From a virus: a stretch of DNA of 64,000 bases. Shown here piece by piece: positions 7,248 to 30,062 of this stretch. Each line of letters opens with the position of its first letter. The stretch's first letter is position 1. Made by a program: the position numbers and the translations under genes. Where the stretch lies: the IMG/VR virus record IMGVR_UViG_3300029267_003762, positions 28,247 to 92,246 of that record. The stretch is one strand, 5' to 3'. A model generated the notes under the pieces. It did not search any database, was not told the DNA's origin, and saw only the letters and a list, made by a program, of their open reading frames with translations.

Positions 7248-8927
7248 ATGGAGTCGCTAGGAAAAAGGGCGCTGGATGTGGCCTTCAAGGAGCTTGGGGT
7301 GGCGGAGGATCCGCCGCGCTCGAACACTGGGCCGCGGATCCGTGAGTACCTCGAGCCGTGTGTGCGGGGCGACCGCAACGTGAAGCTCGGGCTCAAGGCC
7401 TCGAACTGGTGCTTCACAGGAGACACCGAGATTCTGACGGAAGAGGGGTGGATGCGTTTGGATGACGTGTCCGAAGACGTTCAGGTAGCGCAGGTACATC
7501 CAAGGTCGATGCGCATCTCCCTCACCAGGACGGTCGCGGTCATCCACAAGGCGCACAAGGGCGCTCTGGCGGTCATGAGTCGGCGATCTCTGCGTTTGGT
7601 GTCCGACCCGGAGCATAGGTACTTCGGCAAGTGGTGGGTGAGCGCTAGGAGTGGAAGAAAGGACGTACCGGAGGTGGAGCTGCGCCCCGTAGCAGACCTG
7701 ACGGGTGCAGCAACGAAGCTGGTCGTTCCGCCCAGCCGCGGTCACTTCGAGTACGAAAGTGGGTGGAGCAGGCGTGACTTGAAGCTGTTGGGAGCGTTCT
7801 TGGCAGACGGCAGCATCGTCAACGGGAAGTTGCAGTTTCAGGTCAGCAGGGCGGACAAGATAGCGATGTTGCACGAGCTGGAACCTGACCGAGTCTGGGA
7901 AGCTCCCATGCCGTACGGGCCTAGGTCGAAGGAGGCTCTGACCAGTTTCTTCTTCGAGATGCCGTCGGAGTTTGCGGAGGCGTTCGATAAGTACAAAGTG
8001 CTGTCCCCCCGATTCATGTGGAACCTTCACAGGGAGCAGGCTGCTCTCGTGCTCGACACATGGGCGTCCTATGACGGCAGTGCTCGAGGCGGGTCCATTC
8101 GGCTGTCGCAGGCGTCCAAGGACAGGATCGACACGGCCCAGATGCTGGCCGTACTGGCTGGGTATTCCGGTCAGACACAGAAGCCGAAACAGCTCGGTGA
8201 GTTCGGTTCGACCATGCACTTTCTGACGTACGTCAAAGGCCCGCGTAACACGGAGATCCTCGACAAGAACGTCCGCTTGACCGAAGAGCAAGAAGTAGAC
8301 TTGTACTGCGTTCAGGTCCCCAGCGGGCTGATCATCGTCCGCCCTTCTGGGTACGGTAGGGCGCTGGTGGTAGGCAACTGCATGGCGTTCTCGAGCTGGT
8401 GCATGACCGAGGCCCTCGAGGACGGCGAGGTCCCCCCTCACGGCTACCGTGCGGGGGTCGTCGAGGCTGTGGCTGACGTGCGCAGCCCGCACGCCAAGTT
8501 CTCGGGCGTTTGGCACCCGGTCGAGACGGTAAGAAAGAAGCTCTGGACGCCGTTCGAAGGAGACCTGGCCATCTGGGACCGGTCGACCACAGATCCGAAC
8601 ACGTCTTGGTGGCGGCACGTGAACCGGGTCGTGAAGTACGACGCCGGTGTCGGCGAGTTCGACACCATCGGCGGCAACGAACGGGACCAGGTGCGGGTCG
8701 CCGCACACCACGTGTCCGAGATCAAGCTGCTCGGCTTCATCGCCTACCCGCAGCCCGAGGACAAGCCCGAGCCCAAGCAGATCGACGCGCTGACGCACGC
8801 CAACCTGCTCGGACTCGTGGCCCGTACCATCGACGGAATGTTGCGCGACTCGCACACCGAGATGATGGAGTCGCACCACATGGACGACGACGACGACGAC
8901 GACTACGACGACGACTACGACGACTAG
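7248..8927 (+). CDS. CHAP/NlpC-P60-like cell-wall hydrolase split by an intein
   Basis: The 559-residue precursor contains an intein at residues 55-377; the spliced product is 236 residues. The exteins join as KASNW|CMAFSSWCM, the catalytic-Cys signature of CHAP/NlpC-type hydrolases (family form WCAxFVxWC). H in WWRHVNRV and the GGNERDQV motif also fit. The N-extein (ALDVAFKELGV...GPRIREYL) matches the usual helical start. The C-terminus is an almost pure Asp/Tyr tail. The likely role is peptidoglycan cleavage at lysis or entry. Neighbours are unrelated leftward genes. Confidence 0.8.
   Translation: MESLGKRALDVAFKELGVAEDPPRSNTGPRIREYLEPCVRGDRNVKLGLKASNWCFTGDTEILTEEGWMRLDDVSEDVQVAQVHPRSMRISLTRTVAVIHKAHKGALAVMSRRSLRLVSDPEHRYFGKWWVSARSGRKDVPEVELRPVADLTGAATKLVVPPSRGHFEYESGWSRRDLKLLGAFLADGSIVNGKLQFQVSRADKIAMLHELEPDRVWEAPMPYGPRSKEALTSFFFEMPSEFAEAFDKYKVLSPRFMWNLHREQAALVLDTWASYDGSARGGSIRLSQASKDRIDTAQMLAVLAGYSGQTQKPKQLGEFGSTMHFLTYVKGPRNTEILDKNVRLTEEQEVDLYCVQVPSGLIIVRPSGYGRALVVGNCMAFSSWCMTEALEDGEVPPHGYRAGVVEAVADVRSPHAKFSGVWHPVETVRKKLWTPFEGDLAIWDRSTTDPNTSWWRHVNRVVKYDAGVGEFDTIGGNERDQVRVAAHHVSEIKLLGFIAYPQPEDKPEPKQIDALTHANLLGLVARTIDGMLRDSHTEMMESHHMDDDDDDDYDDDYDD
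7410..8378 (+). mobile_element. Intein (323 aa) with LAGLIDADG homing-endonuclease domain
   Basis: Block A starts with Cys1 (CFTGDTEIL). Block B has His in DPEHRYF. Dodecapeptide-like motifs are LLGAFLADGSI and VLDTWASYDGS. Block F contains DLYCVQV. It ends VVGN followed by extein Cys. The penultimate residue is Gly instead of the usual His, which occurs in some active inteins but may slow Asn cyclisation. Insertion is exactly before the catalytic Cys codon (8379-8381). Confidence 0.88.
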
Positions 8928-8929
8928 CC

Positions 8930-10189
8930 CTACCTCTGAGTCGCCCTCTTGATGATGTCGCTGAACTTCCTGACGTCCGGCGACTCCATCTTCGGATCCC
9001 TGATCACTGCGGTCAGGGCGTTCTCGAGCTCGGTGATGCGCTTCGAGCGCGCCTCGTTGCTCTCCCGAAGTTGCCTGATCGTCTCGATGTTGTTGGACAG
9101 CTCTGTTGCGTTGGCGTTGAGGGACTCGTGGAGCTTCTCGATGCGCCCGTCCATCTCTGTGACGGTCGTCTGCAACTTCGTGTTCTTCTCCTTGAGCTTG
9201 CCGATACCCCTGCGGATCCTTGAGAACGCCTGCTCAACGGACTCTTCCTCGTCGGGAAGCGCGAGCTGGGACTGCACTCTCATGAGGTGGGCCTCGAGCT
9301 CGTTGCGGATGACGTCGACGACCGGCGTGAGCCTCAAGAGGCCCGTGCCGGTACCGCCAAGCGAGTGGTACACCTCCTCCAGTGTGCCGGCGATGCGCTC
9401 GTAGGCTTCCACGGCGCTCTCATCCGGCCTGCTCTTCCCGATGGCGTCGCCAATGGACACCAGTTGCGACATGAGCTTGCCGCTTGCCACCTTCTGGTTC
9501 TCGAGGTCTTGCACGACTCGTGCAGCGGCCTTGTCGACGAACTCGTCCCTGTGGGCCCCCAGGGTTGCGCGCGTGCGCCTCAGCACGTCGTGGTTCCATG
9601 AGTCGGTGTTCGGGTCCACCTCGATTGGCCTCTTCGCGAGCTCGTTGGCCGCCTCCATCGGGCCCTTGAGGTACTTCTCCAGCAGCCTGAAGTTGCCGTC
9701 GAGGTGGTCGCATGGAACGATGCCGCAGTGCTTGACCAGCGTTCGGACCTCGTAGTTGAGCGCTTCGATGTGCCCGTTGAGCAGTTGCGACAGTCCGGCG
9801 GCGCTGGTGACTGGGAGCTCTTGAGGCTCCTTGCCGACGTGCTTGAGCCCGTTGGTGATCGAGATGAGCGAGTCCTCCAGGGCCCCAACGAGCTTCTCAT
9901 GCGTCTCCCTGCCCGACATCTTCTTGAGCTCCTCGATCTTCTCGACGAGCTGCCTCTCGTTGGAGTTCGGTTGGAGCCCAGCTGCGACGTTGACACGCTG
10001 GATGGCGGCGGAGAGCGTCGTGTGCATGGCTTGGTAGAGCCGAACGTGGTCTTTGAGGAGGTCCACTTGCTCAACGAGCTCATCGACCCGTGCGAGCTTT
10101 GCCCGCACGTACGCCCCGGTGACATCGACTTCGATGAAGTCCTTGTCGCCTTTGAGGGCCTCGAAGCCCTCTTTCGTTTTCTCTGTCAC
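8930..10189 (-). CDS. Long coiled-coil protein
   Basis: A 419-residue protein, ATG 10189, 11 bases after the stop of the preceding gene. Predominantly helical with heptads: residues about 30-60, 70-95 and especially 310-400 (KLKEKNTKLQTTVTEMDGRIEKL...). Cys appears only in HCGIVPCDH near residue 155. The stop falls 2 bases from the stop of the convergent hydrolase. No recognised family; a structural or DNA-organising role is possible. Confidence 0.65.
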   Translation of the reverse strand: MTEKTKEGFEALKGDKDFIEVDVTGAYVRAKLARVDELVEQVDLLKDHVRLYQAMHTTLSAAIQRVNVAAGLQPNSNERQLVEKIEELKKMSGRETHEKLVGALEDSLISITNGLKHVGKEPQELPVTSAAGLSQLLNGHIEALNYEVRTLVKHCGIVPCDHLDGNFRLLEKYLKGPMEAANELAKRPIEVDPNTDSWNHDVLRRTRATLGAHRDEFVDKAAARVVQDLENQKVASGKLMSQLVSIGDAIGKSRPDESAVEAYERIAGTLEEVYHSLGGTGTGLLRLTPVVDVIRNELEAHLMRVQSQLALPDEEESVEQAFSRIRRGIGKLKEKNTKLQTTVTEMDGRIEKLHESLNANATELSNNIETIRQLRESNEARSKRITELENALTAVIRDPKMESPDVRKFSDIIKRATQR

Positions 10190-10200
10190 TGCTTCCTCCT

Positions 10201-11094
10201 TCAGCTGACGCGGCCAGCAGTCTGCGTGTCATTCGAGGTGATGACGTCCTTGCGGGCGACCTTGCGTGCGGCCCTGCCCCTCGCAGGTGCCTTCGTAGTC
10301 TTCTTGGCCGCCGTCTTCTTCTCCTTGGGTTCTTTGCCGGCGACGCCGTCCTGCACCTTCTCGACGTTGACGAGGCGGAACTTGCCCTCGCCGATGGAGC
10401 GGTCGGCCCACAGCCCATTCTCCTGGGCCAGGGTGAGGATGCGGACGAGCTCCTCCTCCTTGATGTGGCGCGTGTCGGCGGGGTGCGTGGGGGCGACCCA
10501 CCAGTCGAACGTGCAGTACACGTCTGTGAGGTAGTCGGTCTTCTTGATCGCGGTCCTCGGGCCCTGCATGGTCATGACCTGGATCGCCCGCTCCTCGCAG
10601 CCGTCCGGCTCGGTCACGTACATGCGGCCGGCAGTGGTGATGCGGTAGAACAGAAGCTGGTTGCCGTGGTCCAGCCCCTCGGGCTTGATCTCGGTGCCGT
10701 GCTTGAGGTGTTCGGTCTTCGGGCGGTCCTGCAGGATCCTGTGCACCGAGACCGTCTCTTTGATGCACGCCTTCGGGCAGCGGGCGAACATGTACATCTG
10801 GCCCTCGGAGTTCCTGGGAAAGCCGATCCAGGAGCGCTCCTCCTTCTCCTGCCCCTCGATGGCCTCGAGGTTCTCTTCGTCCTGCTGCTCGGTGAGCTCG
10901 TCACGCTCTTTCACCTTCGTCTTGAGCTCGGCGTAGCTCTTCTTCGGCTTCTTCGCCTGCTGGTCGCCGGCGATGACGAGGGGGTTCAGGGGGTGGCCGC
11001 CGATGATGCGGTTCGGCGCCTCGACGACGATCGTGATGCGGTAGACGTCGTAGAACTGCTTGGGGCTGGTGTCGTACTTGTCGAGTAGGTTCAT
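10201..11094 (-). CDS. Hypothetical 297-residue protein with basic tail
   Basis: ATG 11094 has RBS GAAGGAGA. The central part (residues about 85-210) is a mixed fold with three Cys (ARCPKAC, DGCEE, VYCTFDWW). The last about 45 residues are Lys/Arg/Ala-rich (KKTAAKKTTKAPARGRAARK) as in nucleic-acid-binding tails. It is the first gene downstream of the 1-kb pentad array in the leftward direction, so it may depend on or regulate that array (inference). Confidence 0.65.
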   Translation of the reverse strand: MNLLDKYDTSPKQFYDVYRITIVVEAPNRIIGGHPLNPLVIAGDQQAKKPKKSYAELKTKVKERDELTEQQDEENLEAIEGQEKEERSWIGFPRNSEGQMYMFARCPKACIKETVSVHRILQDRPKTEHLKHGTEIKPEGLDHGNQLLFYRITTAGRMYVTEPDGCEERAIQVMTMQGPRTAIKKTDYLTDVYCTFDWWVAPTHPADTRHIKEEELVRILTLAQENGLWADRSIGEGKFRLVNVEKVQDGVAGKEPKEKKTAAKKTTKAPARGRAARKVARKDVITSNDTQTAGRVS

Positions 11095-11163
11095 CTTCTA
11101 TCTCCTTCAGGTAGTGATTGGTTCAAGGAAGAAGTAAGGAAGCTGCTTGGACAGGCTAGGCCT

Positions 11164-12203
11164 GTCGCCAGGGTTGCCGTGACCAGGCGCGTCGATCGGC
11201 AAGGGGAGGTGTGGCAAGTCACTGGCACCGGTTCAGGCGGGTAGGTCGATTGGTTTGGTCAGAAGTGGTGAGGCATGTCGCACGGGTGGGATGGAGCGGG
11301 CACGGTTCGTCGGGCGGCAAGGTGAGGTGCGAGAAGGCACGTCGGCGGGCACGAGAAGGTCCGGCGCAGTGCGTCGACCGAGTGGGCATGACTTGGCTGA
11401 TCGATAGGGACGGCCCGACCAGGCTCGTCGGACGAGAAGGAATGGCGCGGTATGTCGTACGGCATGATGTGGGCTTGGCGGGATTGGGGTGAATAGTCGA
11501 CCAGTTCGGATGAATCAGGCACGTCGAAGAGTCCGGTAAGGCATGGCCCGTCGTGTGTCCTGGTCTGCCTTGGCATGTCCTGCGATGGGGCGTGCATCGG
11601 TTCGTCGCAAAGCTGGGCGTGGTTCGGTTCGTCGACCGGAGTGATTCGTTGAGGAACGGATTGTCGATCGTGTCTGGTCGGGACCGGTTTGGGCCGTCGC
11701 ATGAACCTGAACTGGGAAGGCATGTCGACTGGTCCGGCGAGGTAAGGTACGTCGGATGGGCCGGATGAGTGGGGCACAGCTCGTCGCGTGAGTCGTAAGA
11801 CACGAACTGGTGAGGCATGGGTTGTCGAGCGGGCCGGTACGACTTTAGCACGGAACGTCGAATGGCCAAGCAAGGTACGGTTTGTCGCATGGGAAGGCTG
11901 GGAACGGATCGATGGTGGTCAGTCGCGTGGCGTGGTGCGGGTCGGATCGGATGGTTCAGCCCTGGCCAGTCGAAGGATCGGGAGTGGTGGGGCCTGTCGG
12001 CTGGGACGGGTCGGAAGGGTTTGGTGAGTCGCCTGGGCTGGCATGTGCGGGTCCGGAGTGTCAGACGGTTTGGCGTGGTCAGTCCCCTAGTTCGATACGG
12101 AGTGTCGGACGGGTGGACCGGGAGTGGCCCGTCGGATGGACTGGAGAGGAGTGGGCGGGTTCGGAGTGTCGGTAGGGTCGGTGCGCCGCAGCGAGGCATG
12201 TCA
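11164..12203. repeat. Non-coding array of 34 degenerate units: GTCG marks spaced 27+5n, filled with NNGGN pentads
   Basis: GTCG (sometimes GTCA, GTCC or ATCG) recurs at 11164, 11191, 11218, 11245, 11277, 11309, 11341, 11373, 11400, 11427, 11454, 11496, 11523 and so on to 12200. I count 15 spacings of 27, 10 of 32, one each of 37 and 42, a few off by one (28, 33, 38) and three irregular. Inside units GG sits every 5 bases (pentads NNGGN), then two bases and GTCGN. 27 and 32 are not both multiples of 3, so this is not coding. The array fills the gap between two leftward genes. The other bases vary freely. Confidence 0.9.
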
Positions 12204-12509
12204 AAAGGGCGGCTCCTCGTCACCGTCTACCACAGGCAGGTCCCGGAGGTAGTCATCGAGCTCGAGGGGCCATGGTGGCAATCCGCTACCGCATCGGCCG
12301 CTGCCGTGGCGGTGCGGGAAAGGGTAAGCATCACAGCCGCAGACTCCGTACTTGTCGAACTGCACGGTCCTCATCCACTTGCAGAGAGGGCGGCCCGGTC
12401 GGCACTCCGGCATGTGCACGACCACGGTCCTGTTCACCACGTAGCACCTCCCGCCGCCTGCCTCGAGCTCGCGGGTGGTTCGCGCCCTCTTGTGAACGAG
12501 CTTACTCAT
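12201..12509 (-). CDS. Cys/His-rich small protein
   Basis: A 102-residue protein starting at ATG 12509 inside the end of the upstream gene (8-base overlap). Cys at CRPGRPLC (about residues 36-43) and CGCDAYPFPHRH (about 57-68) suggests a zinc site. An acidic end (VVDGDEEPPF) runs to the edge of the pentad array. Function unknown. Confidence 0.6.
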   Translation of the reverse strand: MSKLVHKRARTTRELEAGGGRCYVVNRTVVVHMPECRPGRPLCKWMRTVQFDKYGVCGCDAYPFPHRHGSGRCGSGLPPWPLELDDYLRDLPVVDGDEEPPF

Positions 12510-12756
12510 TCTTCGTTGCGAGGTTCATCTTGCTGATTGGGATGTTGAGGTACTCACGTACCTTCTCCGATTCCTCGTGCGAAAGGGCCCGCGGAACGCC
12601 CTCGCACAGGTGCTTGCCGATGGCGTAGTGCCTGTCGACGTCGTTCCTCAACAGCCGTCCGCATCGCGGGCAATAGTACATCGGACGGCTGTCCTTGCGG
12701 GCAGCGTTGTACGCCATCCGAAGGTGATTCCTCGGATACACGGACAGGTTGAGCAT
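12502..12756 (-). CDS. Zinc-finger protein, 84 residues
   Basis: ATG 12756 with RBS AAAGGAGG. CPRCG (about residue 29) plus H...GKHLC (43-51) forms a C2HC zinc finger, followed by a helical end. It is the first gene of a short leftward unit and is preceded by the repeated 18-bp element at 12789. A DNA- or RNA-binding regulator is plausible. Confidence 0.65.
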   Translation of the reverse strand: MLNLSVYPRNHLRMAYNAARKDSRPMYYCPRCGRLLRNDVDRHYAIGKHLCEGVPRALSHEESEKVREYLNIPISKMNLATKNE

Positions 12757-12788
12757 GGTTCCTCCTTTCGTGAGGTAGGGGCTGAGAG

Positions 12789-12806
12789 CGCTGCTCTTAT
12801 GCCCCC
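12789..12806 (-). promoter_or_regulatory. Repeated 18-bp element upstream of a leftward unit (copy 1)
   Basis: On the minus strand the sequence is GGGGGCATAAGAGCAGCG, identical to 60389-60406. Both copies lie 27-33 bases before the start of a leftward gene with a strong RBS, and both have CAAAAA(A)G about 10 bases further upstream. CATAAG may serve as the -10. The exact duplication between two unrelated loci indicates a phage promoter or regulator site. Confidence 0.65.
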
Positions 12807-12841
12807 AGTCTTCTTCTTTTTGCGCAGAAACAGAACAGAGG

Positions 12842-12870
12842 TTGACCGGACGGGCAAGACGACCTACGCT
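12842..12870 (+). promoter_or_regulatory. Promoter for the transglycosylase gene
   Basis: TTGACC (12842-12847), 17 bp, TACGCT (12865-12870). The predicted start near 12877 is followed at once by a terminator hairpin (12895-12915) and then the gene at 12931, which suggests attenuation or timing control. Confidence 0.55.
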
Positions 12871-12894
12871 GCGCTCAATCCAACCGTACCGAAG

Positions 12895-12915
12895 GCCTTC
12901 TCAGGAAGGCTTTTT
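12895..12915 (+). terminator. Intrinsic terminator in the leader of the transglycosylase gene
   Basis: GCCTTC-TCAG-GAAGGC is followed directly by TTTTT: a textbook rho-independent terminator for rightward transcription. It lies between the promoter at 12842 and the start codon at 12931 and would have to be bypassed for expression. Confidence 0.7.
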
Positions 12916-12930
12916 GCGTAGGAGAGCACC

Positions 12931-13803
12931 ATGTTGAGCAAGTTCGCTGAGATGATCTTCACTCTTCTTCTGGCTTTCGGTGGCGAGAAGTACGCAGGCA
13001 ACAGTCCGTACAGCTTCGAGATCGCTCAGGGCTGTGGGACGAACCAGGGCTCGCCGGCGTGCGCGCTCACGCCTCAATGCGAGGTCAAGGCTTGGAGGTG
13101 TGCGCCGCCGCGCTGGTCTCCGGCCCGGGAGGCTTGGGTCCTTCCTGAGAGCAGCGCGAAGGCCAAGGAGCGGTACCACAAGATCGCCGAGTCGATCGCC
13201 AGGGTGTCGTTCTGGCATGCCAGGTGCCGGGATGAATGGGGAACCGTGAGGGAGGACTGCACGCCCAGCGGCTGGCCCGAGGGGCCCGAAAGCCTGGCGC
13301 GCGTCGCGGCCACAACAGCCTTGTGGGAGAGCGGCCTGCGGGAGGACATCATGTTCGGGCACGCCCCGATGGGCCGCGGCGCCATGGGGGAGACGTGCCT
13401 CGCCCAGATCATGCCCAACCAGATCCGTCAGTTCGCCTCGTGGATACCCCAGGATGAGCTCGACACCTACGACAAGCTGCCGCTCGGCAAGGAGCGGGCC
13501 GAGTGGGACGAGAAGTGGGCGCAGCGGATGCTCGGCGACTCCCCACAAGAACTCGATCGGTGCTTCGACGTCGCGCTGCGCGCACTCGCTCGGGCCCGAG
13601 GGGCCTGCGTCGGTCGACAGGGCGGCGGATGGGCCTACAAGATGTGGGCGATGTACGGCACGGGCAACCGCTGCTCGAGCTTCGGCATCCACGACGACTT
13701 CGCCGCCAAGCGCGCCAGCACCTATCACCGGATGAAGAGCTACAAGCCCTCCCCTGGCGCCGCCCCGCAGACCCCCGTTCCGGAGAAAACCGCTTCAAAC
13801 TAG
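12931..13803 (+). CDS. Secreted or membrane-anchored lytic transglycosylase-like protein
   Basis: A 290-residue protein, ATG 12931 after RBS AGGAG. The N-terminus (MLSKFAEMIFTLLLAFGG) is a weak signal or anchor. The core has a lysozyme-like signature: WESGL with the candidate catalytic Glu (about residue 133), GETCLAQIMP (about 153-162) matching the SLT motif, and a later GGGWAYKMWAMYG. Several Cys pairs suggest a periplasmic, disulfide-bonded fold. Likely cleaves peptidoglycan at lysis. Independent unit with its own promoter and terminators. Confidence 0.7.
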   Translation: MLSKFAEMIFTLLLAFGGEKYAGNSPYSFEIAQGCGTNQGSPACALTPQCEVKAWRCAPPRWSPAREAWVLPESSAKAKERYHKIAESIARVSFWHARCRDEWGTVREDCTPSGWPEGPESLARVAATTALWESGLREDIMFGHAPMGRGAMGETCLAQIMPNQIRQFASWIPQDELDTYDKLPLGKERAEWDEKWAQRMLGDSPQELDRCFDVALRALARARGACVGRQGGGWAYKMWAMYGTGNRCSSFGIHDDFAAKRASTYHRMKSYKPSPGAAPQTPVPEKTASN

Positions 13804-24042: not shown

Positions 24043-24698
24043 TGGACCCCATCAAAGACTTCGTCAAGTTCGCCTTTGACCAGGGTATGGGCAAGGAGGC
24101 GGTGCCGGCTTGGATGAGCAGCCCGGCCGCGAAGGCCGTCGGCACGGCCGCGGGCATCGCCTTGGCCGCCCCGATCGCCGGTGCCGCTGTCGGAGGTATC
24201 GGGGATCTGGCGGGCATGGCCTACAACGCCGTCACCAAGAAGCGCGACTTCAACCAGATGCTCGAGTTCAATCAGGACCTGCGGCAGATGCACAAGCAGG
24301 ACCCGAAGATGGTCAACGCCGCGTTCTCGACGCTGCGTCGGATCAACCCGAAGTACTCCAGGGACCCGCTCGTCGCCGGCGCGTTCGTGCGCAACCTCAA
24401 CGAGGCCCCAGAAGGCGCATTCAATGCGGCGAACACGGCGGCAAGTGCTCGGATGCCCGAGACCATGCTGCAACAGGGCTACATGGGCAACATCGGTAAG
24501 GGCACGGAGATGGGCATGAAGCACCTGACCGATGTGCCCAGAGATGACCCGACGCAGGACTACGCGCGGAAGATGCAGCTCGCCAGGGAGCAACGTCGGA
24601 TGCAGATCGAGACGGATCCGAGGGCCTACAGAGGTCGCGGGGTAGGTAACGTGTCGATGAAACCGGAGTACAGCCACGCCCTGGGACGTCTTGGATGA
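24042..24698 (+). CDS. Virion protein with glycine-zipper membrane segment
   Basis: A 218-residue protein with a start overlapping the previous stop (TGATG). Residues about 33-60 (AVGTAAGIALAAPIAGAAVGGIGDLAG) form a small-residue hydrophobic helix. A Met/Gln/Asn-rich helical region follows. The ATGA overlap with the protease gene shows tight coupling to prohead assembly. Confidence 0.65.
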   Translation: MDPIKDFVKFAFDQGMGKEAVPAWMSSPAAKAVGTAAGIALAAPIAGAAVGGIGDLAGMAYNAVTKKRDFNQMLEFNQDLRQMHKQDPKMVNAAFSTLRRINPKYSRDPLVAGAFVRNLNEAPEGAFNAANTAASARMPETMLQQGYMGNIGKGTEMGMKHLTDVPRDDPTQDYARKMQLAREQRRMQIETDPRAYRGRGVGNVSMKPEYSHALGRLG

Positions 24699-27589
24699 TC
24701 AAGGCAGCCTTCTTCCCCGGCATCGATAAGCACGGGCAACACGTCTTTCCTCTGCACAACACGAGGACGGACGCGCTGTTCGAGAAGATCGCTGCGCCGA
24801 CGTTGCTGCCCGACGTGCTGGACTACATCGACCAGCTGACCCCGCAGAACAACTCGCAGTACGCGCTGCTCAACGCCATGGCGGCGGGCGAGTACTTCGG
24901 GTCCAACATCAACGGCGACTGGTTCCCTGAAGAGGCGCTCATCCACAAGCCGGACACGTGGACCGGCGTTCCCGAGTTCGATCGCGTCCTCGCGCAGAGC
25001 TGGCCGTACGGCTTCCCGACGTTCTACAACGCCGGCGTCTTCGCCCACCATCGCAACAAGGACATGACCAAGTCGTTCGGTGCCGTCGAGCTCGCCTCGT
25101 GGCACCCGGACATGAAGCGCGTCGAGCTCGTCATTCGGCTCGACAAGGAGCCGTGCTACCGCTTTGGTGGCACCGGTCTTTGGGACAAGCTCGCGGCCGG
25201 GCAGATGTTCGACGTGAGCATGGGCTGCAAGGTCCCGTTCGACACTTGTTTTCCTGCGGGCACGCTGGTGCGCACGGAGCTGGGCAACAAGCCCATCGAG
25301 CAGGTTGTCGTCGGGGAGTGCGTACTGGCTGATGGCGGGCAGTACCTGCCCGTCACTGCTGTGATGAAGAGATCAGCCGACGACTTGCTGAGGATCGTCG
25401 CATCCGGCTTGCCCGCGATCACTCCAACCAGCAACCACCCGTTTCTCATAGTACGGCGCGAGGAGGTGCGTGCCTGCAAGGGCACGGCAAACGGGCGTCG
25501 TTGTCGACACTCCCCCGACAAGAACTACGCGCGGCTTTGCCAGAGATGTGGTGCGGAGCTGCACTTCCGGATGACCTGGGCGGCTGCGGCCGACGTACGT
25601 CCGGGCGACTACATGGTGGTGCCCGCCCAACCGTCGCCCAGCCGTGTCGATGTGCCGCTGCCGCGCGCACGGATGCTCGGTTACTACTTGGGGGACGGGT
25701 ACATCATCAAGCAGCGCACCGGCAAGAAGAAGGATGGCGAGTACCGCGACATGGGCGTGGGCTTTTCCGTGGGCTCCTCGGAAGAAGAGCATCTACGCCG
25801 TCTGCTTTTGACACTGGCAGAGGCCGGGCTACAGAACGAGCCATGCGTGTACGATGCGGGATGCAGCCGGAAGGCGCGCATCGTTTCTGTGTACGACCAG
25901 GAAGCGGCTGCATGGTTGCAGGAAGTGGGCGGCCGTGGAGGCCGCGGTAAGCGTCTGGACGAGCAGGTGTTCGACTGGCCGCTGGAAGCCAAGCTCGAAC
26001 TCGTAGGCGCCTACATCGACACGGACGGCTCGTTTGACGAGGACAAAGGGCAGGTTCGTATCGCGTCGGTAAACCGCGGGCTGCTCTTGGACGTGCAGCG
26101 GCTACTTCTGCAGGAACGTATCACCGCAACCGTGTGCTATGCGGGGAGTGGGTCCGGCTACGAAAACAGCGATGCTTGCTGGTACTTGGTACTGGCTGCG
26201 GCACAGGCGCAGAAGTTTCTAGGTAGGTCAACCAAGGTCAAGCCCCGAGAAGTGGGCTGGGAGTCGCCGAAGTCGTTGTTCTGGGAGGGGTACTGGCTGA
26301 CGCCGGTGACGTCCATTGAAGAGCTGGACGGCGAGCAGGAGGTCTACAACCTGTCGGTTGAGAAGATGGAGCAGTACGTCGCCGAAGGACGAGTCGTCCA
26401 CAACTGCTCCATCTGCCTAGACTGGCCGCTGTACCGGGAAGCCCAGGCGACGTTCGACCCCGGGGTCCACAAGCACCCCGGTCAGGCCGTCCTCGAGTTC
26501 CATCGCAAGCTCATTGCCCAGCGCGGGCAGGGCATCCGAGGTCTGGCGATCACACGCAAGGACTACTGCGTGCACGCCAAGACCATGATGAACCGGATCT
26601 TCCCGGATGGGCGCAGGGTGTTCGTGTACAACGACTACCCTCGCTTCTTCGACATCTCGGGCGTGTTCATCGGCGCGGACAAGACCGCCAAGGCCATGCT
26701 CAAGATCGCGGAGGCGGCGGAGCGCAGCTACCACTTCTTCTGGTCTCGTCCGTCGGCGGAAGTAGCCGAGGACCTGGGGTACACAGAGGGGTGGTCGGAG
26801 AAGGCCGCGGCTGCCGTGCTCACGCCCCAGCAGCTCGCCGACGATCTACTCAAGCAAGCCTTCATGGGCAAGGGTGCCAAGCTCAAGCGCGCCGAGATCA
26901 CCAAGGACGTCGTGCCCTCACAGTTCGCCGCGTCGGCGGTCCCTCTCTTGACCCACAGGGAGCCGTCGCTGTCGAACGACCTTTTGGACCGGCTGGCGAA
27001 GAAGCCGATGCGGGACGTTCTATCTACCTCCGGCGGGCTGGGCATGGTGATGCGCCCTCGGGAGTTCCAGCGGCTCATGCTGTCCCGGCTCGGACTCGGA
27101 AGAGAAGCCGATGACCTGGACCGCCGCAACATTGTTTTTCCACGAGTCGAAGAAGAGGAAGAAGTAGGGCTGTCGAAAGAGCGATTCAGCCCACTGATAG
27201 CCAAACTGCTTCAACCCTTCTTTGACTCGCGCTCTTCTTTCGGTCCTGCAGTAGAGAAGAGGGTGACCATCATCATGGTCGGGGACCGCGGTGGAAAGAA
27301 TAGACCCGCTTCCCAACTCTCCCCTCTTCTGCATAAGATAGGAGCCGCGTACAACGGGTACAGGAAGTCGCTCATGCAATTCGTCCCAGAAGCAGTTGAA
27401 GTCGGTCAACAGACCGGAGCTCCTGAAGAGCTGCACAAGTGCGCGTCCGCACCCGTTGAACAACTTTTCACCCCGCTCTCGGTGGCGTACGTCAAGAACG
27501 CCTTTTGGGACGAGGTGGGTATCAACCAGGCACAGGCCACAACGGTCGGCGTGGAGAGGGACTACCCTCGAGGAACACGTGTGCTTTGA
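24695..27589 (+). CDS. Prohead maturation protease split by an intein
   Basis: The precursor has 964 residues; the spliced product has 578. N-extein marks: NINGDWFPEEAL (about 71-82), the candidate catalytic His in FAHHRNKD (118/119) and Ser175 in DVSMGC. The C-extein begins CSICLDWP and continues FFDISGVFIGADKTAKAMLKIA, as in large-phage prohead core proteases. The enzyme trims scaffold and capsid proteins. ATG overlaps the previous stop. Located between terL and capsid genes, as expected. Confidence 0.85.
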   Translation: MIKAAFFPGIDKHGQHVFPLHNTRTDALFEKIAAPTLLPDVLDYIDQLTPQNNSQYALLNAMAAGEYFGSNINGDWFPEEALIHKPDTWTGVPEFDRVLAQSWPYGFPTFYNAGVFAHHRNKDMTKSFGAVELASWHPDMKRVELVIRLDKEPCYRFGGTGLWDKLAAGQMFDVSMGCKVPFDTCFPAGTLVRTELGNKPIEQVVVGECVLADGGQYLPVTAVMKRSADDLLRIVASGLPAITPTSNHPFLIVRREEVRACKGTANGRRCRHSPDKNYARLCQRCGAELHFRMTWAAAADVRPGDYMVVPAQPSPSRVDVPLPRARMLGYYLGDGYIIKQRTGKKKDGEYRDMGVGFSVGSSEEEHLRRLLLTLAEAGLQNEPCVYDAGCSRKARIVSVYDQEAAAWLQEVGGRGGRGKRLDEQVFDWPLEAKLELVGAYIDTDGSFDEDKGQVRIASVNRGLLLDVQRLLLQERITATVCYAGSGSGYENSDACWYLVLAAAQAQKFLGRSTKVKPREVGWESPKSLFWEGYWLTPVTSIEELDGEQEVYNLSVEKMEQYVAEGRVVHNCSICLDWPLYREAQATFDPGVHKHPGQAVLEFHRKLIAQRGQGIRGLAITRKDYCVHAKTMMNRIFPDGRRVFVYNDYPRFFDISGVFIGADKTAKAMLKIAEAAERSYHFFWSRPSAEVAEDLGYTEGWSEKAAAAVLTPQQLADDLLKQAFMGKGAKLKRAEITKDVVPSQFAASAVPLLTHREPSLSNDLLDRLAKKPMRDVLSTSGGLGMVMRPREFQRLMLSRLGLGREADDLDRRNIVFPRVEEEEEVGLSKERFSPLIAKLLQPFFDSRSSFGPAVEKRVTIIMVGDRGGKNRPASQLSPLLHKIGAAYNGYRKSLMQFVPEAVEVGQQTGAPEELHKCASAPVEQLFTPLSVAYVKNAFWDEVGINQAQATTVGVERDYPRGTRVL
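25247..26404 (+). mobile_element. Intein (386 aa) with LAGLIDADG endonuclease domain
   Basis: Starts Cys1 (CFPAGTLVRTELG). Block B is TPTSNHPFLIV. Dodecapeptides are MLGYYLGDGYI and LVGAYIDTDGSFDED. Blocks F/G are EVYNLSVE and VVHN, followed by extein Cys (26405). An insert with CKGTANGRRC...CQRCG near residue 75-100 of the intein looks zinc-binding. All splicing residues are canonical. Confidence 0.92.
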
Positions 27590-27615: not shown

Positions 27616-28497
27616 ATGAACGAGTTCCTCGCACAGTACTTCGGTACGAACGCCACCCCGGACATGATCGAAGAGCAGACGAAGCAGGCCGAGGCCGAGA
27701 CCTTCGTCCAGCTCGCCAAGGAGGCCGGGGTGCCCCTGCACCAGATGACCGACGCGCAGATCGCCGAGCTCTACGAGCACGTCATGGGCAAGACCGCCTC
27801 TGACGACGGCGATGAGGACGACGAAGAGGAGAAGAAGCGCAAGGCGGCCGAGGAGTACGCGTCCAAGAAGGAATCCCACGTCAAGTTCGCCGAGGCCACC
27901 GAGATGGGTCAGATCATGGCCCACAGCTTCTGGAACGAGCTCGGTGAGATCGAGAAAGAAGCCGGGCGCGGCAGCGAGTTCCTCAACAAGGCCAAGGGCA
28001 AGGCCATGCGCATTGGCGGAACTGCGGCAGGCTACGGGGCTGAGGCTCTTTCTGCCCTTACCGGAAGCACCGGACGCAGCAAGGCCAAGCTCCTCAAGGA
28101 GCTCAAGGGTCGCACTGGCCACGTTCCGGGCGGCGCGAAGATCGAGAAGAACCTCGCCAAGGAGATCGCGGCCCACAAGGCCCGTTCTCTCAAGGCTCGC
28201 CTTGCCGCTGGAGGCGGCGCTGCGGCCCTCGGCGGCACGGGTTACGCTCTCGCCGGTCGCGAGAAGGATTCGGCGGCGGCGCTCAACGAGCTCGCTCTCG
28301 AGCTTGCCGTCGAGAAGTGCGCGTCCGCCGGCTGGGATGCTGATGAGGCGTCGACGCGCATCGTTTCCGCCATCAACCTCGATCTCGTCGACGAGGACAA
28401 CACCAAGATCGCGTATGCGAACGACGTCGACGGCGCCGTCGAGATTCGTTCGTTGGAGCTCATCGAAGCGGCCGGCTACCCGGTCACGTGGGAGTAA
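27616..28497 (+). CDS. Probable scaffold or head-core protein
   Basis: ATG 27616 after GAAGGAG. A 293-residue protein with an acidic run (DDGDEDDEEEKKRK, about 62-75) and a helical, charged body. A Gly/Ala hydrophobic segment (LAAGGGAAALGGTGYALAG, about 195-213) precedes a folded C-terminal domain. The place between protease and capsid suggests a scaffold or core protein cleaved at maturation. Confidence 0.65.
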   Translation: MNEFLAQYFGTNATPDMIEEQTKQAEAETFVQLAKEAGVPLHQMTDAQIAELYEHVMGKTASDDGDEDDEEEKKRKAAEEYASKKESHVKFAEATEMGQIMAHSFWNELGEIEKEAGRGSEFLNKAKGKAMRIGGTAAGYGAEALSALTGSTGRSKAKLLKELKGRTGHVPGGAKIEKNLAKEIAAHKARSLKARLAAGGGAAALGGTGYALAGREKDSAAALNELALELAVEKCASAGWDADEASTRIVSAINLDLVDEDNTKIAYANDVDGAVEIRSLELIEAAGYPVTWE

Positions 28498-28520
28498 GGG
28501 CGAGCCCTTAGGAACACCCA

Positions 28521-30062
28521 ATGGCAGCGACAGGAGTAGGCATGGTCAACAACCCGGAAGGCACCGCTCAGGTGGCGCCGACCGCGACCATGTCTCCCCT
28601 GCCTGCAGTTCAAGTACCGACCACACCTGCTCCCAAGCTGACGGCTGATCTCAGCAAGAAGCCGGGGAGCGCGCAGGTCGGGGCTCGAACCAACTACTCC
28701 CGAGTGAACACCGGTGCCCCGATGGCCTCTGATGCAGGAGAGAGTTCTCAGAAGTCACTTCAGCCGAAGATGGCCGGGGCGTTTTTCAAGTCGCAAAGTG
28801 AGGTTCCTATGACACACGCAGCTGCACGTCCGACGCTTCAGCAGATGTTGAAGCACGCGATGGCAGGGGCAACGTCTGCGATCGACTCTGGTCAGATCGC
28901 TGCCGCGGCTCGTTCGCAGCTCGAGGTCGGAGGGAACCGGAAGGAGGCGAGCGCGCCTCCGGAGGGCCAGCCGATCTCACGAGAGTACGCGCACAAGCTC
29001 GCCTCTGCTGTCGACTACTACGCCGAAGTGACGTTCGGTAAGGTAGCGCAGGACGCACCCACGTCGCCGGGTCACGGACCTGGCGCACTCGACGTCACCG
29101 AGTCCATGGATGGCCCGCCCATCAGTGAGGACTCTGGGCAGGCGACGTCGGGCAACCAACCGCCCATGAACCCAGGCACCGGCAAGGTGGCTCCCAATGC
29201 CGTCGATGCCGCTACCGCCCTGGACAACGATGCAGACCACCGGCCTGGCGCCGACGCGGAGAAGTCCTGGTCTCCTGACGGGGACAGCACTCGCTTCTCG
29301 AAGGTCTCGCAGATCGAGCGCATTCGGAAACTCGCCGCTGGGCGCGTCGTCGATGAGCAGAGGCAGCAGGCCATGGGACGCATCATGGCCACCGCCGAGG
29401 AAAAGCTCGATCGAGACCGCGCACGGGCGGGAGAGAAGTCCTACGTCCCCTTTGAGGGCAAGAAGGGTCGCAACGCTCCGAAGCCCTCCGCTGCTCCGAA
29501 GCCCTCCGCTCCGAAGCCGTCGGCCGCCCCCAAGGTCAAGCCGTCGGATGTGAGGAAGGGCGTGGGCATCGTCGAGCGTATCCGCAACATGAGCGGACGC
29601 AACAAGGCGCTTGCTGGGGCCGCTCTCGGACTCGGTACTCTTGGGGCCGGGTACGGGGCGTACCGGGCTCTTTCGGGCAAAGAGAAGGCCGCGTCTTCGC
29701 AGATCGGTCTCATCCGCAAGCTCGCGGAAGACGCGATCAACCCTGCGCACATCACGGCTGCGCACAACGCTCCCGAGCCCCAGACGCTCGAGGCGTCCGA
29801 CCCCGGGCCGTCCGGGGAGAACAAGGGGATGCTTCCGACCACTCCTGAGGGCGTCGCAGACGCCACCAAGCGGTCGGTCAAGGCCCCCTTCGTGAAGAAG
29901 GACATGCCGGACTACGTCGACGAGCCTGCTTTCTCGGCGCCTCACGACAAGGTCTTGCAGAACGCCTTCGCCAAGACGGACGAGTCCGGTGCGAAGATCT
30001 CTTCGATCGACGCGACCTCGGCCGCCCGCGCGCTCTTCAACCGACTGGCAGAGGAGGCCTGA
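28521..30062 (+). CDS. Disordered virion-associated protein with KPSA repeats
   Basis: A 513-residue protein, Pro/Ala/Thr-rich throughout. Lys-Pro-Ser-Ala repeats (KPSAAPKPSAPKPSAAPK) lie around residues 323-340. A hydrophobic Gly-rich stretch (ALAGAALGLGTLGAGYGAYRAL) is near 370. Short IGLIRKLAE and IERIRKLAAG motifs recur. It is probably an internal head or scaffold component; no family recognised. Confidence 0.6.
   Translation: MAATGVGMVNNPEGTAQVAPTATMSPLPAVQVPTTPAPKLTADLSKKPGSAQVGARTNYSRVNTGAPMASDAGESSQKSLQPKMAGAFFKSQSEVPMTHAAARPTLQQMLKHAMAGATSAIDSGQIAAAARSQLEVGGNRKEASAPPEGQPISREYAHKLASAVDYYAEVTFGKVAQDAPTSPGHGPGALDVTESMDGPPISEDSGQATSGNQPPMNPGTGKVAPNAVDAATALDNDADHRPGADAEKSWSPDGDSTRFSKVSQIERIRKLAAGRVVDEQRQQAMGRIMATAEEKLDRDRARAGEKSYVPFEGKKGRNAPKPSAAPKPSAPKPSAAPKVKPSDVRKGVGIVERIRNMSGRNKALAGAALGLGTLGAGYGAYRALSGKEKAASSQIGLIRKLAEDAINPAHITAAHNAPEPQTLEASDPGPSGENKGMLPTTPEGVADATKRSVKAPFVKKDMPDYVDEPAFSAPHDKVLQNAFAKTDESGAKISSIDATSAARALFNRLAEEA

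What the first reader, a model, noticed from the sequence alone, without database searches (positions are those of the whole stretch)
11164..12203. A 1-kb non-coding array of GTCG marks spaced 27+5n bases with GG every 5 bases
I read 34 units. Spacings between GTCG marks are mostly 27 or 32 (25 of 34), with single 37 and 42, and a few off by one. Within units the pattern is GTCGN, then 4 or 5 pentads NNGGN, then two bases. Other positions are free. A 5-base grain that sets both the GG phase and unit length is neither codon-like nor CRISPR-like nor a simple tandem repeat. It is under selection for spacing, not sequence. Candidates: a multi-site protein-binding platform (origin, partition or packaging), or a multi-site RNA decoy.
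Basis: seen in the sequence. Interest (0 to 1): 0.92.

Follow-up and report, generated by a model that had tools for sequence, protein, structure and literature searches.

The report
Phage guide-RNA array of a VIPR system
The odd 1-kb repeat is almost certainly a bank of guide RNAs for a small CRISPR-related phage protein encoded right beside it (a "VIPR" system, first described in an April 2026 preprint); this is a further and unusually dense example of that new kind of RNA-guided weapon between phages, not a new kind of system.

Summary
From 11149 to 12203 the + strand is built of GG words and GTCG marks separated by exactly three free bases: GTCG-N3-(GG-N3)4-5, hence spacings of 27 and 32. 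GG autocorrelation at lags 5, 27 and 32 is 6.6-8.2 s.d. above dinucleotide shuffles, GTCG at 27/32 about 15 s.d.. The same grammar occurs in 67 distinct arrays from other viral contigs and two actinobacterial genomes.

The gene beside it (10201-11094, minus strand) encodes a RAMP-fold protein. Its family profile's best PDB match is the SUSP1 Vipr protein, and its AlphaFold model matches Cas7/Csm3/Cmr subunits. Searching by that protein alone recovered arrays beside it in 23 of 34 viral loci, always on the opposite strand. This matches VIPR (PMC13142463): RAMP protein plus guide RNAs with conserved GG(Y) alternating with hypervariable NN that read DNA with a one-base skip.

So it is a member of a known, very recent kind. 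It differs from the characterised type II form: no per-guide tail, antisense orientation, dense GTC(G) marks, probably the "staggered" arrays the preprint mentions briefly. Targets were sought and not found. How the marks work remains inferred.

The parts
11149..12203 (+). vrRNA-like guide array: units GTCG-N3-(GG-N3)4 to 6, about 30 units; G-rich strand is the guide strand by analogy with SUSP1 (where the G-rich strand is the vrRNA)
   Evidence: autocorrelation vs shuffles; unit decoding; same grammar in 67 distinct arrays
10201..11094 (-). vipr: RAMP-family (Cas7-like) protein, 297 aa, with glycine-rich loop GLWADRSIGEGKF
   Evidence: family adjacent to arrays; best PDB profile hit SUSP1 Vipr 36pp; AlphaFold2 model pLDDT 79.6 and Foldseek hits to Cas7/Csm3/Cmr RAMPs
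11100..11107 (-). putative ribosome-binding site of vipr (AAGGAGAT), between vipr start and array
   Evidence: read directly from sequence
12200..12203 (+). terminal GTCA mark overlapping the TGA stop codon of the neighbouring gene 12201-12509(-); the same arrangement is seen at the ends of several other arrays
   Evidence: sequence; array ends

Best explanation
The window carries a VIPR (Viral Interference Programmable Repeat) locus of an uncultivated myovirus: a vipr gene on the minus strand and, divergently on the plus strand, a dense array of guide RNAs. The array transcript is bound by Vipr subunits, each gripping a GG(Y) every 5 nt and presenting the two hypervariable bases before the next GG. 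Serial dinucleotides (5-8 per unit, more if guides run across a mark) base-pair with DNA of a competing phage or satellite with one base skipped between pairs, and block its transcription. GTC(G) marks delimit units, probably for processing or as the start/end of staggered, overlapping guides. Shown here: the grammar, its recurrence, the tight linkage to a RAMP family that includes SUSP1 Vipr at profile level, the fold, the opposite-strand layout, and turnover of array content. Taken from the preprint: RNA binding, one-base skip, DNA repression. Inferred: that they apply to this array, the role of the mark, and the target class.
For: Grammar and statistics (over 578 distinct units the first G is 97% G, the second 82%, the two N positions near-uniform, 0.19-0.32 each base). 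The protein family sits beside arrays in 50 loci. Found by sequence alone, 23 of 34 loci have an array next to vipr (22 of them within 1.3 kb; in L334 2.9-4.4 kb away), all on the opposite strand, while 792 kb of control strands give 0 arrays. Profile hit to SUSP1 Vipr in PDB (E 0.0029) and to the SUSP1 gene itself, aligning the G-loop. RAMP fold: Foldseek 6s6b Cmr-beta E 5e-6, type VII Cas7 and Csm3 E about 1e-5 to 1e-4; PADLOC Csm4 0.0013. SUSP1 vrRNAs re-read here show the same lag-5/10/15 GG phasing. Content turns over faster than genes: L306 and L308 are about 99.9% identical over vipr but differ by an in-array deletion of about 210 bp; L306 and L309 Vipr are 93% identical yet their arrays do not align. 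Homologous units differ at NN (23 substitutions/226 sites) but never at the first G (0/96). Preprint.
Against: No natural target was found for any unit. The Y after GG is weak in the pooled arrays (C+T 47%, G 36%). Units between marks hold 5-8 dinucleotides, fewer than the 9-16 of SUSP1/P. fulva vrRNAs, and there is no per-unit tail. The array is antisense to vipr, unlike SUSP1. No vap gene was identified. Sequence similarity to SUSP1 Vipr is remote. Eleven of 34 vipr-like loci had no array by the strict detector; some are cut by contig ends.
Confidence: 0.93

Rival explanations
1. Double-stranded DNA platform: a replication origin, partition or packaging site bound by a multimeric phage protein with a 5-bp grain.
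For: Dense, strictly spaced short motifs in an intergenic region; strong local GC skew (0.31).
Against: Always strand-polar with respect to a RAMP gene whose fold binds RNA guides; content differs completely between near-identical relatives, whereas an origin or pac site would be conserved; a GG every 5 bp alternates faces of the duplex; the same layout matches an experimentally shown guide-RNA system.
Confidence: 0.03
2. RNA sponge or decoy, or a structural RNA: Vipr coats the RNA but it guides nothing.
For: No targets found; many words are degenerate in this array (second G 82% overall).
Against: NN positions are near-uniform and differ freely between homologous units while G1 is invariant, and arrays turn over by unit loss and replacement, as expected of a guide bank; the related SUSP1 system is shown to guide DNA binding.
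Confidence: 0.03
3. C-rich leader or rut-like region on the minus-strand mRNA between gene 12201-12509 and vipr.
For: The array lies between two minus-strand genes; that strand is C-rich and less structured than shuffles (z +2.5).
Against: In many relatives the array lies downstream of vipr rather than upstream; the strict 3-base gaps and GTCG marks have no role in Rho loading; the SUSP1 guide strand is the G-rich one.
Confidence: 0.01

Closest known systems
VIPR type II of Escherichia phage SUSP1 (PMC13142463; PDB 36pp)
   Same: Phage-encoded small RAMP protein with G-loop; neighbouring intergenic RNA of 5-nt repeats with conserved GG and two hypervariable bases; profile-level homology of the proteins.
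   Different: SUSP1 has four separate vrRNAs of about 100 nt, each with a long structured tail, on the same strand as vipr, plus vap1. Here about 30 short units separated by 3-4 nt GTC(G) marks, antisense to vipr, no per-unit tail, no recognised vap.
VIPR 'staggered arrays with overlapping vrRNAs' (named in one sentence of PMC13142463, fig. S18 not readable here)
   Same: Probably this architecture: closely packed, tail-less units.
   Different: Could not be compared: the figure and supplement are not held.
Class 1 CRISPR-Cas (Cas7/Csm3/Cmr4 backbone and crRNA array)
   Same: RAMP fold of the protein; array of variable units between constant marks; unit deletion between near-identical relatives.
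   Different: Mark is 3-4 nt, not a 20-50 nt repeat; variable bases are interrupted by GG every 5 nt; no other cas gene was recognised in the neighbouring genes tested.

Membership tests
VIPR (general) | Vipr protein: RAMP homologue with RRM core and glycine-rich loop | tested here: met
   Best PDB profile hit is SUSP1 Vipr; hmmsearch against the SUSP1 gene aligns the G-loop; AF2 model matches Cas7/Csm3/Cmr RAMPs
VIPR (general) | Intergenic tandem pentanucleotides next to vipr: conserved GG alternating with hypervariable NN | tested here: met
   (G1 97%, G2 82%, NN near-uniform)
VIPR (general) | Pyrimidine after GG (GGY) | tested here: inconclusive
   76% Y just before marks in the window, but 47% over all arrays with G at 36%; the preprint allows 'a related consensus' in other types
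VIPR (general) | Carried mainly by phages and proviruses | tested here: met
   Virus record with terminase, major head protein and tail sheath; relatives mostly IMG/VR contigs
VIPR (general) | vrRNA transcribed and bound by Vipr | not testable with these tools
   Needs RNA sequencing and pull-down
VIPR (general) | NN series match DNA targets with a one-base skip | tested here: inconclusive
   574 units against 6.5 Mb of held sequence, both strands counted: no excess over reversed-order controls; three long guides from relatives against all IMG/VR gave only hits without neighbouring-unit support
VIPR (general) | Accessory vap gene | tested here: inconclusive
   No neighbour family shared across array loci except vipr; some clade-specific neighbours
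VIPR type II | Each vrRNA has 9-16 YNNGG repeats followed by an invariable structured 3' tail | tested here: not met
   5-8 dinucleotides between marks, no repeated tail; hence not filed as type II
CRISPR-Cas | Long direct repeats separating unique spacers | tested here: not met
   Only a 4-nt mark recurs; TRF finds no tandem repeat here
CRISPR-Cas | Neighbouring cas genes (effectors, adaptation) | tested here: not met
   PADLOC on six neighbouring proteins: only a weak Csm4-like RAMP signal in vipr itself

The most novel reading that the evidence does not exclude
This is a distinct VIPR architecture in which a 3-4 nt GTC(G) mark replaces the long vrRNA tail, the array is always antisense to vipr, and each unit is read twice as neighbouring guides overlap across the mark, so that tens of guides are packed into 1-2 kb and exchanged like CRISPR spacers.
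Probability: 0.35. Interest if true: 0.7.

Novelty: new member of a known kind. Interest (0 to 1): 0.52.

Why it matters
VIPR is proposed as the forerunner of CRISPR. The characterised examples have a few long guides; this layout packs dozens of short ones with minimal marks and shows unit loss and replacement between near-identical phages, the dynamics expected of a step towards CRISPR arrays. It also shows that the strict three-base-gap grammar alone is enough to find such loci in raw sequence.

Tried and rejected
Rfam search of 10000-13500: nothing. RNA folding of either strand: no structure beyond shuffles; minus strand less folded than shuffles. Tandem repeats: none. Coding on the minus-strand 334-aa ORF: rejected, unit lengths break the frame. 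sigma70 promoter/terminator scan: nothing convincing. Targets: exact 6-8-dinucleotide matches at skips 0-3 over held loci showed no excess over reversed-order controls; genome-scale scans with 8-dinucleotide guides of L148, L338 and L320 gave 10, 5 and 18 hits, none supported by adjoining units or the rest of the guide, so treated as chance. Origin/partition/packaging reading rejected because array content is not conserved between 93%-identical systems.

Full report
What is in the sequence. The window lies in a 92,246-base uncultivated virus record with terminase, major head protein and tail-sheath genes, so a myovirus. Between a minus-strand gene ending at 12201 and a minus-strand gene starting at 11094, the plus strand from 11149 to 12203 is made of GG and GTCG words separated by exactly three bases. 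34 GTCG are present (11164-12203) where shuffles of the slightly larger region 11121-12210 give 18; spacings 27 and 32 are about 15 s.d. over shuffles; GG pairs at lag 5, 27 and 32 are 8.2, 8.0 and 6.6 s.d. over, and lags 2, 3 and 7 are depleted. Most irregular intervals become regular when degenerate marks (GTCA, GTCC, ATCG) are admitted.

Same grammar elsewhere. Pattern scans of IMG/VR followed by a detector for phased GG anchored on GTC[GA] found the same construction in dozens of other viral contigs; after merging duplicates 67 distinct arrays are held. Two variants exist: unit length 5n+2 (as here, GTCG-N3-GG) and, more often, 5n+3 (GTC-GGY-NN-GG or GTCG-N4-GG). Arrays range from 8 to about 50 units. 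Over 578 distinct units the first G is 97% conserved, the second 82%, the base after GG is C/G-biased, and the two bases before each GG are nearly uniform.

The partner gene. The gene beside the window array (10201-11094, minus) has no PHROG or convincing Pfam match, but its relatives sit beside the arrays in 50 loci. Conversely, searching IMG/VR with the window's protein clade alone returned 34 loci, of which 23 carry an array next to the gene by a strict detector (22 of them within 1.3 kb; in L334 the arrays lie 2.9-4.4 kb away), in every case with the G-rich strand opposite to the gene, upstream or downstream of it; 792 kb of control strands gave none. One named phage, Microcystis phage Mae-JY09 (PP395641), and two actinobacterial genomes carry the pair.

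What the protein is. The conserved C-terminal motif G(I/L)GAxRSQGxG(R/K)(F/Y) is a RAMP glycine-rich loop. The family profile's best hit among all PDB sequences is 36pp, 'SUSP1 Vipr protein' (E 0.0029), followed by Csm4, Cas7 and Cmr6 RAMPs. The AlphaFold2 model (pLDDT 79.6, pTM 0.70) matches Cmr, type VII Cas7 and Csm3 subunits by Foldseek (best E 5e-6). Run directly on the SUSP1 locus, the profile matches the gene at 28474-29061 and aligns its G-loop; the neighbouring SUSP1 intergenic DNA shows the same GG phasing at lags 5, 10 and 15.

Known system. A preprint dated April-June 2026 (PMC13142463) reports VIPR: a phage RAMP (Vipr) with vrRNAs of alternating GGY/NN; NN dinucleotides pair with double-stranded DNA with one base skipped, repressing competing phages; seven types, some with 'staggered arrays with overlapping vrRNAs'. 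No other paper in the library uses the term. The window locus fits this kind. It is not the characterised type II form: there is no tail per guide, units between marks hold 5-8 dinucleotides instead of 9-16, and the array is antisense to vipr. Whether it is the preprint's staggered type cannot be checked because the figure is not held.

Array dynamics. L306 and L308 are about 99.9% identical over vipr and differ by a deletion of about 210 bases inside the array. L306 and L309 have 93% identical Vipr proteins but arrays that do not align. L309 and L310 are about 91% identical over vipr and share only short array segments. Among 17 closely similar unit pairs, substitutions fall on NN (23/226 sites) and the second G (10/112) but never on the first G (0/96). 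The pairs are few and not independent, so this is suggestive. A group of related contigs with partly homologous arrays (L232, L319, L320, L323, L330, L332, L335, L338; several carry non-metagenome IMG identifiers) shares a tail-like sequence after the last mark (GGCTAGCCG..CGGCGTCGCAGA), which may correspond to the published vrRNA tail; the window array has none that is evident.

Targets. With the published one-skip rule, 574 distinct units were tested against 6.5 Mb of held sequence (both strands counted) at skips 0-3, without excess over reversed-order controls. Three long guides from relatives were scanned through all of IMG/VR; none of the hits extended to the rest of the guide or to neighbouring units. 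This is a weak test: one guide per scan, unknown hosts, unknown reading across the mark. The guide function of this particular array is therefore inferred from homology.

Most likely mechanism. Plus-strand transcript of the array; Vipr subunits bind a GG every 5 nt; NN dinucleotides address competing DNA; GTC(G) marks separate or stagger guides. Two adjoining units hold 10-16 dinucleotides, the range of published vrRNAs, so overlapping guides spanning one mark are plausible, but this is arithmetic, not evidence. The loose second G and the degenerate words in this array suggest either tolerance or partial decay.

Verdict. A real, striking feature, correctly spotted, now explained as a guide array of a VIPR locus: a new member of a very recently described kind, in an architecture that the preprint mentions only in passing if at all.

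Noticed in passing
L232, L319, L320, L323, L330, L332, L335, L338 (reverse complement, just after last mark): A related group of contigs (several with non-metagenome IMG identifiers) shares a conserved hairpin-like tail GGCTAGCCG-N8-CGGCGTCGCAGA after the last array mark, possibly the vrRNA tail or array terminator.
   Followed up: partly
L332 unit 14 and L338 unit 18: Homologous guides GA-TC-GA-CG-GT-AT-CT and GG-TC-GA-AG-GT-AT-CT; read as first two codon bases, the fourth change CG to AG can be synonymous (Arg), as if tracking a coding target. One example only.
   Followed up: no
L339 (PP395641, Microcystis phage Mae-JY09): Genome is 72.3% GC, which to my knowledge is far from the roughly 42% of Microcystis; the host label may be wrong (a heterotroph in the culture).
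   Followed up: no
window 7248-8927: Single ORF with weak CHAP-domain signal (371-477) preceded by an intein-like N-terminal block (CFTGDTEILTEEGW...VVGNC): probable intein in a cell-wall hydrolase.
   Followed up: partly
window 24695-27589: 964-aa ORF with Hint/intein-splicing and LAGLIDADG matches: another intein with homing endonuclease, a few kb from the terminase gene.
   Followed up: no
L311, L307 and L334: Two separate arrays flank vipr in L307 and L311; L334 carries array-like sequence over about 4 kb with 107 GTCG.
   Followed up: partly
Array ends in window, L133, L331 and others: The last mark is often GTCA and its complement supplies the TGA stop codon of the adjacent minus-strand gene, so array and gene end are fused.
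   Followed up: no
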